Positions 49,337 to 55,945 of a stretch of DNA of 64,000 nucleotides are shown in pieces. The stretch covers positions 50,167,001 to 50,231,000 of the forward strand of contig NC_092316.1 of NCBI RefSeq assembly GCF_036785885.1, given 5' to 3'. This stretch comes from Coffea arabica. Taxonomy: Eukaryota; Streptophyta; Magnoliopsida; Gentianales; Rubiaceae. Within the stretch, counting starts at the first letter, position 1, and the number at the start of each line of letters is the position of its first letter. The notes beneath the pieces were generated by a model, which made no database searches, had not been told where the DNA came from, and worked only from the letters and a program-made list of their open reading frames with translations. Made by a program: the position numbers and the translations under genes.

Positions 49337-49708
49337 TCATGGCGAAGTGTTATCAGCTTCAGCTGCGTAGCCGATAGGGCTTCCCACTCCAGGAGGACAG
49401 CGACAGGGGCAACATGAGCCTGGAGGCGCTGGTGCACAGCAAACACAGGCAGGACAAACAATCGGGGGTCGCCTAATAAGCTCTGCATGCAAAACCAAAA
49501 ATAAAACACATAAATCAATGAAAATACAAAACTGTTTTCTGCATAAATAGTTTAACGTTAAATATTGATCAAGAAGTTTGCTCTAGCAGATCTTGATGAG
49601 GAATTCAGTACCTGGGGTTGGTCTTGTTGCCTCACATGGTAAAGTGAGAACAATGGAGAACAGAACAAGTGTGGCCACAGCAGCCCTCATAGAAGAATTC
49701 AGTGCCAT
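49337..49708 (-). CDS. Small secreted eight-cysteine peptide precursor, copy 1 (two exons)
   Basis: Exon 1 is 49708-49612, ending CCAACCCCAG before GTACTG. The intron is 49611-49483, ending TGCATGCAG. Exon 2 is 49482-49337, with stop TGA. The 97+146 bp give exactly 80 codons plus the stop. Residues 1-27 form a signal peptide (hydrophobic VATLVLFSIVLTL, likely cleavage after CEA). The mature part holds CPACVCC, a Pro-rich spacer APAPPGS, and CCPCRC, then PPGVGSPIGYAAEADNTSP. All eight mature cysteines lie in two tight clusters. The paralogue at 55577-55945 has the same length, intron position and phase, and Cys spacing, which is strong evidence that both are real. Clustered CC and C-x-C resemble metal-binding or knottin-like peptides, but I recognise no characterised family. 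Secretion is inferred from the signal peptide. Confidence 0.8.
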
Positions 49709-51364
49709 TGTCTGCAGAAACTGTTTGGTGCATTCGGATGTCAAATTCTGGGCATATTTTATAGGGGTTGGAGAACCATAAAATATTGTAAATATCCAAC
49801 TTAAAATAGTTTTTTTTTTTTCCTTTTCTCTTATCTAACTTAAACTAATGCATTCGTTTTCAAACTTGTCATGGTCCTAAGTCTAAACTGCAAAGGCGTA
49901 GTTGGAATTAATTACTAGTATTGAATTTCCGTTCATTTCATTCAAAGTCTTGGAGTCTGGATTCAAACTATGATCACTTGCGTACCCAAGAGGAAAACTC
50001 GAAACTGGTGTTTGACAATGGAACCATTTTAACTGTAATCGGTGAACTTGACATGACCCACACCAAAAGTTTGTCAAGGGTATCGCATGATGAGATCCTA
50101 ATTTGAAGATAAGAATGCAATTGTTTATATTTTTTTGGTCAAAAATGAAGTACGAATTAATTTGAATGTTAACAAACTCCTTGAGTGCGATTTCTTGGAA
50201 ACAAGGATAGTTTTTCTTAACCTTTTGGCTGTCATTATGTTTTTTAATTGATCTACATTTGCATGCATAACGTGATTTTTTATACGTGAACGTGTTTTAA
50301 CTAGATGCTAGTTTTGATCCCAATATTCATCGGTTATTAATTACAGTCTTTATTCATTTTTTTTGTGAGTTTTTTGTATATTATATTTGAGTTATAAGTT
50401 ATAATCTGCGTGTAATAGTGAAACCATTATGAGTTTACTATAATCATATGTATAATTTCATCAAAATTCTTTTCTTTTGTGTAACCATGGTTTGGTCTAG
50501 CATCTAGGGAGGTTAATTTTGACTGACTTAAAGGAAAATATTTTGGTTGACTTTGACGCACCAAGTCAACTTGTCTACCGTTTTTTCACTTGCACTTCTT
50601 GAAGATTGAAGCTCATATATACTACTGTTATTGACTATTAGGATTTTTCTCTTTTTGTTATTTTTGCTTGGACTGAAGCTCCCATAAGGTTGTAATAATC
50701 CTGGCCTTGGTTTTAAAATTAGAAGGAAAAAATGAAATTGATGCCAATCGACTGAGAATTAATTTTAGTGAACCCTTTCACCTTAACAGGAAAAAGTTTT
50801 GCCCTATTGATTACTTTTATTTTTCCCTTTGTTTATCAGCATGTAATCTAGCTTTAAGAGCTGAGGCATTGATTGGCAGAAATACACCAAACAATTTAAA
50901 TATTTTTCTTAGCCTTTTCCTCTTATTTTCCTTTTTTTCCTCTTACTTAAACTGGTGAGGTGTTAAAGTAGTTGTTTACAGTCCATCTATTTATTAATGG
51001 CTTAATTAAAAGAAAAAAAATTTCTTTTGTAATCTTTTTGAGGAGAGGAATGGATGGGAGGTAGAAATAGAAATTGGAAGGAGACGGTGAGAATGAAATT
51101 TCCGTTCAAGAAAAATTGCAAAATACCTTTCGATTCTTGCAACATACTGTCATGCAATACCAATATACATACATACATATATATATATATATATTCTTTG
51201 ATGAATATTTATAAAAAATATTTATTTATCACCTACGACAATAATACGAAGAAACTATTAACTAATCAAGTTAGATTTTTCTAGAGATATAGTGCATATT
51301 TTTCTTGCTTGTATAATTGAGCAAAAGTGGTGGCGTGAAAGAATTAAGAACAAAAAGGGCAAAA
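49709..51364. other. Intergenic DNA upstream of Cys-rich copy 1
   Basis: This holds the promoter side of the minus-strand gene, with TTTTATGGTTC-type sequence near 49775 but no certain TATA box. There is a TA run at 51177-51194. No other gene is seen. Confidence 0.35.
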
Positions 51365-52240
51365 AGGGAAAATTAGGAAATCAATTAGGTGAATTTCTCC
51401 AAAAAATGAATTTCTCCATCCTTCACATTTCAAAAAATGAATTTTTTCATTTCTCACTAATTATGTGTGTGAATACATTTTTTTAAACACACGTATATGT
51501 TTATTTGATTGTGCTTAATAATAATAGCATAAATACATGTATGTAATTAGGCCCAGGTTGTGGGCTATCTTCTCTTTTTGTATGATTATGACTAATATTT
51601 ACCAATAGAACCTTAATTTGTATATTCTTATTGTATTTTGACTGAAAATAGCTTTATTGGCTAACTTGACAATGAATGCAAGATTATTTACCAGCTAATA
51701 CCATATGAAATCAAATGATCACGTATAATATATAGTATTCGTATTATTAAGTGAAATCAAATAGACATATACATATATTTATGCTATTCGTATTATTAAG
51801 TAAAATCAAACAGACATATACATGTGTTTAAACAAAATGTATACACACACATTTTTTTTTAGGGTTTCCCTCACATACATAATTAGTGAGGGATGGAAAT
51901 ATTTATTTTTTGAAATGTGAGGGATGGAGAAATTCATTTTGTGAAATGTGAGGGATGAAAAAATCATTTTATAAAATGTGAGGGACGAAAAAATTTATTT
52001 TATAAAATGTGGAGGACTATAGATCAGATTATGTAAAATATAATTTGACAAATTTACCCTTAAAAAATGATCACGTGCCTTGCACGTGATGAATTCCGGC
52101 CAAAAAATGATCAGAAACCTAGTTAGGGACTAAATTTGATCGATGTGAATATATAAGGGACATAAAATTATACTTTTAAAAGTGAGGGATGAAAAAAGTT
52201 ATTTTATAAAATGTGAGGGATGTTTTGACGATTTTCCCTA
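51365..52240. mobile_element. TIR element with subterminal GTGAGGGATG repeats
   Basis: The ends AGGGAAAATTAGG and CGATTTTCCCT are inverted. Inside, ATGTGAGGGATG-type units of about 36 bp repeat at 51886-52020 and again at 52175-52215, and their reverse complement appears near the left end (CTCCATCCTTCACATTTC, 51415-51432). Inverted subterminal arrays are typical of non-autonomous DNA transposons. A 50-bp direct duplication (TATTCGTATTATTAAGT units at about 51736 and 51786) lies between them. No transposase. Confidence 0.55.
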
Positions 52241-53620
52241 TAATAAATAGGGCATAGTTGTCCTTCTTTCTATAAGAGGAGTGTTAACTTCTGAAAGTAT
52301 GATTTGTGGTGGTGATGCGATAGACCATTAAATAATGTCTTGGATGACACCATTACAAAAAAAAAATAAACAAATAAAAGCCGCCCTTACCTGTTGGCTG
52401 GCTACTTTAAATGAGAGATTGTATAGTCAATTATGGACATCACCACACTCATAAGTCACATTCGCGTTCAGACGGTGAAAGAAGTATTATTGACCCTTAA
52501 ATTAAATATTATTGAATGTTTAAAATTTAAATTATTATCTTTAGTGAGAGAGACAAATTGAAGGAATGGTAATCAGAAGGGATCATAGAATTTTTTCCTA
52601 AATTTTATATCTAGTTATAGAAATCGTAATATTACATTGATGAATCAATTCAATCACCACACACTTGTAAGTAAGAGATAATTGTACGTTGCAACTGTAT
52701 TCAACTTTGTTTTCAATAGACAATGACAGGTTTCAAATCAGCTCAAGAAGTTGGTTGAAAGAAGATGAAGTCATTGAGATGATCTCATTTCTGCATCCAT
52801 TTTGCAAGTCTGTTAGATCAACGGAATTTATACGCAAAAAAATTGAAATTGTACAAATTGGTCTTATTATACCTAGGAATGCTCTTTTTTTTACCCCCCT
52901 AATTTTGAAGCCTACAATCATATTACCTTCTTCTTCTTCCTTTTAATGTTCATCATGTTACATTTACTCAGCTTGCACAATGCACTACTACGAAGTGATA
53001 CAGGTGACCCTTTTAGGCCCAATGTCTACCTAAAAGATACACAAGTTTCTATATTACTATTGTTTAATAGTATTTTAGTCATGTTAAGGTTTTAGTAATT
53101 CTATTTGAGTCAAATTATGGTAGTTTTATTATTTAGAAATTAGCATTTTATTAAAAAAAAATTGTATGATTGTAAAACTAGTTATCAAGTCATCTAGTTT
53201 ATAAATAGGGAGTCATGTTATTGTAGTTAGTTGATAAGAGCAAAACTTGAGAGACTTATTATTATGTGTAATTTTTTTTATATATATTATTGATTTATTC
53301 CTCTTGTTCCTTGCATGTTATTATGTGTGTAAATTATCTCCCCATATCTGTTGGTTTTATGAAATTTATCGCCTGTATATTTTTGGTGGAATTTTTTGAG
53401 TTGTACCTTAGCATTCAACAATTTGCATCTACAAGCATTTGTGGATATGATTTCTAAGTAACAAATTTATTTGGAGTAAATCCACTTACCAAGAGACTGA
53501 AATTCATATCTTAAAGGACATAACAATAGACTAAAAAAATTATTGTGTAACAAGAAGAGTAATTTTGAGTGTGGTATCATCGACAGCTTATTATACATCA
53601 TTTCAAAAACAAAAAAACTT
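52241..53620. other. Intergenic, no supported gene
   Basis: The small frames at 52689-52946 have no family signal. The section at about 53000-53400 includes a TATAAATAGGGAGTCATG promoter-like string and might be an old solo LTR, but I could not identify paired ends or a duplication. Confidence 0.35.
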
Positions 53621-55422: not shown

Positions 55423-55576
55423 AACCCAAAAAAACAAAAAAAAATTGGACATCATCATTACTTATAACAAGTGAAAATGAAACCATGGAAATTAATAGTA
55501 GTCATAATTTGCTCATTATATCATTGCTACTGTAGGATAAAATTCTGTCGAAATTGAAGGGCTCTGAGTGCAATTT

Positions 55577-55723
55577 TCATGGAGCTTCATTTCCGGATTC
55601 AGTAACATAACAGGCGCAGTAGCAACAATCCGGTGGCGGTAGTTCTTTATGGCAACATATACATGGAGGACAACTCGGCTTCTGCATAATTTCTGCTTCA
55701 CCCAAAAAGTACTGAATTACAAA

Positions 55724-55779
<56 letters not shown>

Positions 55780-55945
55780 ACTTAGCAAAATCACACAAGA
55801 ACATAAAATTGGATGTACCTCGATGAGTTAATCCAGAACTTCCAGCTGCATGGGATGGTATGGTTGATGAAACCAAGATTGCAAAGATAACAAATGCAAC
55901 CACAAGTAGAGACTCTTGGGAGGATTTGGCTGCCATTGCTCTCAT
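55577..55945 (-). CDS. Small secreted eight-cysteine peptide precursor, copy 2 (two exons)
   Basis: Exon 1 is 55945-55819, ending ACTCATCGAG before GTACAT. The intron is 55818-55693, ending GTGAAGCAG, and contains a 49-nt TA run. Exon 2 is 55692-55577, with stop TGA. The 127+116 bp give exactly 80 codons plus the stop, as in copy 1. The intron happens to be open in frame, so a naive reading gives a 122-aa protein with an IYIYIY tract; that is an artefact. Residues 1-33 are a signal peptide (LLVVAFVIFAILVSS, cleavage likely after SHA). The mature part carries CPPCICC, spacer HKELPPPD, CCYCAC and a short acidic tail. A second in-frame Met (residue 4) is a possible start. The function is unknown; the Cys pattern is shared with copy 1. 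Confidence 0.82.
55729..55777. repeat. (TA)n microsatellite in the intron of Cys-rich copy 2
   Basis: 49 nt of uninterrupted TA, likely length-variable between individuals and therefore a usable marker. Confidence 0.95.

What the first reader, a model, noticed from the sequence alone, without database searches (positions are those of the whole stretch)
49337..55945. Pair of two-exon genes for secreted eight-cysteine peptides of unrecognised family
Splicing joins two short minus-strand pieces in each gene into exactly 80 codons. Both have a signal peptide, a phase-1 intron at the equivalent point, and C-x2-C-x-C-C-x(7,8)-C-C-x-C-x-C. The two share little outside the Cys core, so the pattern is conserved while the tails drift. 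That suits a selected secreted peptide (metal-binding, antimicrobial or signalling; all three are guesses). Simple ORF calling misses copy 1 and mis-translates copy 2 through its TA-repeat intron.
Basis: partly seen in the sequence, partly recalled or inferred. Interest (0 to 1): 0.7.

Follow-up and report, generated by a model that had tools for sequence, protein, structure and literature searches.

The report
Unnamed eight-cysteine secreted peptide family, coffee
Two neighbouring small genes in a coffee genome each appear to encode a short secreted peptide with the same unusual eight-cysteine pattern, and they belong to a larger unnamed gene family whose job is still unknown.

Summary
Both genes are where the finding puts them: two minus-strand, two-exon models (49337-49708 and 55577-55945), 80 codons each, phase-1 GT..AG introns, pattern C-x2-C-x-CC-x7/8-CC-x-C-x-C. 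They are not just a pair: this Coffea genome (most likely allotetraploid C. arabica) holds 12 copies with the full core in seven groups, plus broken or partial copies. With no phase demanded, the phase-1 model scores best in 8 of 11 loci and second in three, copy 1 among these. Between partner chromosomes exon 2 diverges less than introns (4/527 vs 31/592 sites, p=8e-6) and exons carry no indels; dN/dS between partners is weak evidence. No Pfam, NCBIfam or PDB-sequence match; coffeetides, lybatides, jasmintides, beta-ginkgotides and Bowman-Birk inhibitors differ. Best reading: an unnamed plant cysteine-rich peptide family, probably secreted, disulfide-locked around a proline-rich loop, perhaps apoplastic defence; signalling and metal binding stay open. 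Expression, secretion, disulfides and presence in other plants were not testable. Common origin of the two window copies is likely, not shown.

The parts
49612..49708 (-). Copy 1 exon 1 (CDS part): start codon, likely signal peptide, first base of the split junction codon
   Evidence: paralogous exon 1 matches
49483..49611 (-). Copy 1 phase-1 intron, GT..AG, 129 nt
   Evidence: 5/129 differences to the C8 partner copy; a rival model with another donor exists
49337..49482 (-). Copy 1 exon 2 (CDS part): eight-cysteine core and tail, stop codon
   Evidence: 3/146 differences to the C8 partner copy, no indel
49758..49763 (-). TATA-box-like TATAAA, 55 nt before the copy 1 start codon, same place in the C8 partner copy
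55819..55945 (-). Copy 2 exon 1 (CDS part): start codon, likely signal peptide, first base of the split junction codon
55693..55818 (-). Copy 2 phase-1 intron, 126 nt with a (TA)n tract; 91 nt in the C8 partner copy
55577..55692 (-). Copy 2 exon 2 (CDS part): eight-cysteine core and tail, stop codon; tandem acceptor GAAGCAG at its 5' edge
   Evidence: 1/116 differences to the C8 partner copy, no indel
56036..56041 (-). TATA-box-like TATATA, 96 nt before the copy 2 start codon, same place in the C8 partner copy

Best explanation
These are two members of an unnamed family of plant cysteine-rich peptide genes. The proposed path: transcription from a TATA promoter; removal of one phase-1 intron that separates the signal-peptide exon from the cysteine exon; entry into the secretory pathway; signal peptidase cleavage after about Ala27 (copy 1) or Ala33 (copy 2); oxidation of the eight cysteines to four disulfides. 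The result would be a compact peptide of about 46-53 residues in which two cysteine clusters (C-x2-C-x-CC and CC-x-C-x-C) clamp a 7-8 residue proline-rich loop. The loop and the tail vary between paralogues and would be the contact surface. Most likely use: an apoplastic defence peptide acting on a specific microbial or herbivore target rather than by lysing membranes. Shown here: gene models, family, exon-level constraint, Cys frame. Inferred: transcription, splicing, secretion, disulfides, apoplastic location, defence role.
For: Splice models; without demanding a phase, the phase-1 model scores best in 8 of 11 loci, and it is the only phase possible in five of these (C, D twice, F twice). 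Exon 2 differs at 4/527 sites between partner copies vs 31/592 in introns (p=8e-6) and 123/1973 in 300 nt up plus 200 nt down (p=4e-9); no indels in 972 exon bases, 3 gaps in introns (four of six partner pairs usable). Cys columns 8/8 invariant vs 2/13 other core columns over seven paralogues with the full core. Paralogue dN/dS 0.28-0.70 in nine pairs. Hydrophobic N-terminal stretch and an acceptable -3/-1 site in 11 of 11 models, by a lenient rule; TATA-like box at the same distance in both partners of four of four pairs. Tandem clustering and broken or partial copies (B3 tail, Bd on C8, C on C10, E, G, one 3' fragment) resemble gene birth and death, common in defence peptide families (recalled). 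Two-exon plant CRP genes with signal peptide and mature part on separate exons are usual (PMC3924332, passages).
Against: No transcript, protein or activity evidence. For both A copies and for Bd another splice model scores higher by my crude measure. Net charge of a roughly cut mature part runs from -2 to +3 in the unaltered copies, unlike strongly cationic lytic peptides. dN/dS between partners is close to neutral for copy 1 (5 nonsynonymous, 2 synonymous, 0.91), two nonsynonymous and no synonymous changes for F, and about 0.6 pooled. AlphaFold2 on the two window exon-2 peptides gave no usable fold (mean pLDDT 51). Clustering and decay are also seen in non-defence families.
Confidence: 0.45

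Rival explanations
1. Extracellular signalling ligand: the secreted, disulfide-folded peptide binds a receptor kinase, and the subfamilies differ in receptor choice through the proline-rich loop and tail.
For: Small Cys-rich precursors with a likely signal peptide, exon 2 near-identical between partner copies (4/527), and a well-kept tail in subfamily 2 (ESGN in 3 of 3 proteins).
Against: Several copies are broken or partial; loop and tail differ strongly between subfamilies; no ligand family matched in Pfam or NCBIfam.
Confidence: 0.22
2. Secreted metal-binding peptide: the C-x2-C, C-C and C-x-C pairs hold metal thiolates, as in metallothioneins, in vesicles or the wall.
For: Eight thiols in CxxC, CC and CxC spacing; another eight-Cys coffee peptide was reported to bind Mg and Fe, though through glutamates (PMC10538209, abstract and passages).
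Against: A signal peptide would send it to an oxidising compartment where disulfides are expected; no Pfam metallothionein match at E<=10 in any of ten members.
Confidence: 0.15
3. Protease inhibitor acting like a Bowman-Birk loop: a proline-rich loop between Cys4 and Cys5 enters a protease active site.
For: C-x2-C-x-C before, and C-x-C after, a 7-8 residue proline-rich loop; a basic residue at the second loop position in 3 of 3 subfamily 2 loops.
Against: The canonical Thr (P2) and Ser (P1', both recalled) are absent in 7 of 7 loops; the Bowman-Birk profile finds none of these loci.
Confidence: 0.1
4. Decaying gene family with little or no present function.
For: Interrupted or partial copies; partner dN/dS about 0.6 pooled and 0.91 for copy 1.
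Against: Exon-specific constraint and no indels in exons; ten unaltered two-exon copies.
Confidence: 0.08

Closest known systems
Plant cysteine-rich peptides (CRPs) as a class
   Same: Short precursor, likely signal peptide, one intron between signal and mature parts, Cys frame kept, tandem copies
   Different: The frame C-x2-C-x-CC-x7/8-CC-x-C-x-C is not among the frameworks in the passages read of the 2024 review (PMC11253845); the whole review was not read
Coffeetides / ginsentides (8C, non-chitin-binding hevein-like)
   Same: Eight Cys, small secreted precursors; coffeetides are from Coffea
   Different: One CC pair (III-IV) instead of two; 98-residue precursor with a propeptide of about 39 residues; mature 37 residues (PMC10538209)
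Lybatides
   Same: Eight Cys, two CC pairs
   Different: Order C-C-C-C-CC-CC with wider loops (PMC5507927)
Beta-ginkgotides
   Same: Very small loops and two CC pairs
   Different: Six Cys, C-x2-CC-x6-C-x2-CC, reported only from gymnosperms (PMC5522442; PMC11253845)
Framework XI I1-superfamily conotoxins
   Same: Same order of cysteines C-C-CC-CC-C-C (PMC4278219, passages)
   Different: Animal venom peptides with a cystine knot; the short outer loops here (2,1 and 1,1 residues) make the same knot unlikely (inference); no sequence comparison was made
Bowman-Birk inhibitors
   Same: C-x2-C-x-C, then a proline-rich loop, then C-x-C (motif recalled)
   Different: Extra Cys beside the loop, no Thr/Ser of the reactive loop, no profile match

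Membership tests
Plant cysteine-rich peptide class | Small precursor with several conserved Cys | tested here: met
   78-82 aa in the ten unaltered models. The eight-Cys core stands in 12 places; it was also the selection rule of the scripts, but the loci came from similarity searches
Plant cysteine-rich peptide class | Signal peptide | tested here: inconclusive
   Hydrophobic stretch and a lenient -3/-1 rule fit in 11 of 11 models; no SignalP or experiment
Plant cysteine-rich peptide class | Disulfide-bonded secreted product | not testable with these tools
   Needs peptide mass spectrometry
Coffeetides/ginsentides | Cys frame C-C-CC-C-C-C-C with a single CC | tested here: not met
   Two CC pairs in every full-core copy against the frame in PMC10538209
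Coffeetides/ginsentides | Propeptide between signal and mature domain | tested here: inconclusive
   About 9-16 residues lie between the guessed cleavage site and Cys1; reported propeptide about 39
Bowman-Birk inhibitor (PF00228) | Profile match | tested here: not met
   None of these loci found at E<=10; no match in hmmscan of ten members
Bowman-Birk inhibitor (PF00228) | Reactive loop with Thr at P2 and Ser at P1' (recalled) | tested here: not met
   0 of 7 loops
Lybatides | C-C-C-C-CC-CC | tested here: not met
   Order here is C-C-CC-CC-C-C
Metallothionein | Pfam profile match | tested here: not met
   No match in any of ten members at E<=10
Metallothionein | Metal thiolate cluster | not testable with these tools
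   Needs purified peptide

The most novel reading that the evidence does not exclude
A CRP family with an undescribed disulfide scaffold: two mirror-like cysteine clusters (C-x2-C-x-CC and CC-x-C-x-C) clamping one 7-8 residue proline-rich loop, so that the loop sequence can change freely between paralogues. If so it is a natural loop-display scaffold that may run through many flowering plants but is missed by gene callers and by Pfam.
Probability: 0.35. Interest if true: 0.55.

Novelty: new member of a known kind. Interest (0 to 1): 0.4.

Why it matters
Small two-exon peptide genes are easily missed by gene callers. This family passes an evolutionary test for real exons, matches no curated profile searched, and sits in a major crop, so it gives a ready target list for peptidomics and expression data. 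If its disulfide pattern proves new, it adds a compact scaffold with a variable loop. If not, it is one more ordinary plant CRP family.

Tried and rejected
Sequence searches with no useful result: Pfam (two proteins, ten members, one chance match, CnrY at E=0.16), NCBIfam (two proteins; a bacterial and archaeal library), PDB sequences (only two calcium homeostasis modulator chains at E about 0.2). Bowman-Birk profile over the genome: two chance matches (E 2.4 and 9), neither at these loci; the same profile rang below cut-off in 5 of 14 control genomes.

Weak genome matches at E above 0.1: C22:59542056 (E 0.48) was fetched and holds no core pattern; those on C13, C15, C18 and at C22:28499336 (E 1.2 to 6) were not looked at.

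Genome-wide half-motif pattern: 49 hits vs 2 for the reversed control. 13 of the 49 lie in family copies, the interrupted C10 copy included. Of the other 36 I fetched 19 as stretches of 401 bases; in none does the second cysteine half follow at the family spacing before the first stop, though one (L061) runs on into a dense cysteine tail. One looks like the known peptide TAXIMIN (recalled). The remaining 17 were not read; their matched letters are the same as, or one letter from, ones that were read.

Structure prediction: low confidence, so no fold search was run.

Exon-2 similarity of the two subfamilies beyond cysteines: not significant pairwise (63 to 602 of 2000 Cys-fixed shuffles reach the real score, eight pairs); the hhalign result (E=5e-12) counts the cysteines.

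Phase 1 as an independent finding: my scripts demanded it, so could show nothing else. One search repeats the enumeration without that demand.

Literature: nine searches. Literal motif searches: none; three papers (a catfish mitogenome, a bovine hepacivirus, sweet potato net tunnels), judged by title only and not opened; one search listed 20 of 47, two of them on metallothioneins (Tetrahymena, sugarcane), not opened; one search listed 12 of 19. Papers seen: PMC5507927 (part 1 of 6), PMC7168108 (outline and abstract), PMC6042386, PMC5522442, PMC11253845, PMC5557327, PMC4278219, PMC3924332 (passages), PMC10538209 (part 1 of 8 and passages); the rest as search listings. The library lacks most subscription journals, so absence in print is not shown.
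Full report
Observation. Both genes are exactly where the finding puts them. Copy 1 runs 49708-49612 and 49482-49337, copy 2 runs 55945-55819 and 55692-55577, both minus strand, each 80 codons, GT..AG, phase 1. Copy 2 has a tandem acceptor, so an 81-residue form is possible; the same GAAGCAG is seen in the C8 partner copy, the third tandem copy and both distal copies. The full cysteine pattern occurs twice in the window and in none of 100 Markov simulations.

Source. 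The genome has 131 contigs and 1.198 Gb, with most copies found on paired contigs (C7/C8, C9/C10). An N-methyltransferase exon from C1 is identical over 139 of 139 residues to PDB 2efj, 3,7-dimethylxanthine methyltransferase, which I recall as Coffea canephora. So the genus is Coffea. The pairs are most likely the two subgenomes of allotetraploid C. arabica (recalled biology), because the window and its C8 counterpart match at about 93-98% with large gaps and paired contigs differ in length (C13 40.5 Mb, C14 50.5 Mb). A haplotype-resolved diploid is not excluded. I call the pair members partner copies; the constraint test works in either case.

Family. Searches with copies A (copy 1), B (copy 2), C, F and Bd give: A on C7 and C8; B on C7 and C8; B3, a third tandem copy at C7:50239486-50239816 with a changed, longer tail; Bd at C7:1868839-1869231 and C8:1936924-1937459, the C8 one with an insertion inside exon 1; C on C9, with its C10 partner interrupted in exon 2 by about 7.1 kb with TG..CA ends and a 5-bp duplication, as in an LTR element; D on C9 and C10; F on C7 and C8; E on C9 (exon 1 found, no exon 2); G at C7:11351788 (exon 1 and a decayed exon 2); and a 3' fragment at C7:50238715. 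Twelve places hold the full core: eleven and the C8 copy of F. The search tool warns that counts of large families are lower bounds.

Gene structure. Eleven loci give a spliced model with the intron just before the cysteine core, lengths 91-242 nt. The scripts behind demanded phase 1. Without that demand, and with a crude consensus score, the phase-1 model is first in 8 of 11 loci; it is the only phase possible in C, both D and both F. In both A copies a model read in another exon 1 frame (phase 2) scores higher, and in Bd a phase-0 model does; in these three the phase-1 model is second. The junction codon is Glu in eight models, Lys in one and Gly in two.

Constraint. Four of six partner pairs could be compared over both exons (A, B, D, F). 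Differences: exon 2 4/527, exon 1 10/445, intron 31/592, 300 nt upstream 66/1183, 200 nt downstream 57/790; no indels in exons, three gaps in introns. Exon 2 vs intron p=8e-6, both exons vs intron p=3e-5, exon 1 alone p=0.015. The B intron carries the TA tract, so its 10/91 may be partly misalignment; without B my sums are 3/411 against 21/501. Pair F is uneven, 39/293 upstream and 2/200 downstream. Partner dN/dS is weak evidence: A 0.91, B 0.20, D no changes, F two nonsynonymous and none synonymous; none of the nine nonsynonymous changes lies between Cys1 and Cys8 (read from the proteins). Nine paralogue pairs give 0.28-0.70 (in A against B, 0.28, dS is saturated at 2.1). Over seven paralogues with the full core, 8 of 8 Cys columns but 2 of 13 others are invariant (p=2e-4); G, the C10 copy and the 3' fragment were left out of that count.

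Are the two window genes related to each other? A, C, D and F form one group, B, B3 and Bd another. Single-protein searches with A did not find B nor the reverse. hhalign joins the groups (probability 97.5, E 5e-12), but with cysteines held fixed the pairwise exon-2 score is not exceptional (63-602 of 2000 shuffles). Shared intron position, Arg-Glu-Leu/Ile at the exon junction in 7 of 11 models, equal length and adjacency argue for common origin. I rate it likely, not shown.

What it does. The N-terminus has a hydrophobic stretch and acceptable cleavage sites. A roughly cut mature part is not strongly basic (-2 to +3 in unaltered copies). The two cysteine clusters with a proline-rich loop suggest a disulfide-clamped loop. 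Defence in the apoplast is my first choice, from copy turnover and the variable loop; signalling, metal binding and protease inhibition remain open. AlphaFold2 was of no help (mean pLDDT 51.4).

Comparison. No profile or solved-structure match. Coffeetides, reported eight-Cys peptides of coffee, have one CC pair and a propeptide. Lybatides, jasmintides and beta-ginkgotides have other frames. The cysteine order, not the spacing, equals conotoxin framework XI. Bowman-Birk membership fails. The SPADA paper says that one- and two-exon peptide genes are poorly caught by general gene callers and that the first, signal-peptide exon is usually separated from the mature-peptide exon by an intron (passages). 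So this is a new family of a known kind, as far as these searches reach.

Limits. No other plant genome, transcript or proteome was available, so the finding's own refutation test was met only in part: the pattern is kept between partner chromosomes and among old paralogues (dS up to 0.72 within the first group), not yet in another genus.

Noticed in passing
window 3180-36035, +: Tandem glutathione S-transferase genes: three first-exon ORFs tested match GST_N, a fourth similar one lies at 30737; five further ORFs look like second exons (tau class recalled), three of them tested without a Pfam match. A copia-like polyprotein ORF (19079-21550, recalled, not tested) lies among them.
   Followed up: partly
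window 38580-41261, +: An 893-aa PPR protein ORF without stops, next to tRNA-Leu (CAG) at 38343-38425.
   Followed up: partly
window about 55730-55776: A long TA repeat lies in the copy 2 intron; the intron of the C8 partner copy is 35 nt shorter.
   Followed up: partly
L027, C10:1001591-1008734: About 7.1 kb insertion in exon 2 of the C10 copy, TG..CA ends and ACCCT duplication, as for an LTR element.
   Followed up: partly
L032, about C8:1936985-1937135: Insertion of about 150 nt in exon 1 of the distal C8 copy with partly inverted ends, MITE-like.
   Followed up: no
L060, C9:51304305 (and the same letters at C10:46337036): Reading frame resembling the plant peptide TAXIMIN (recalled).
   Followed up: no
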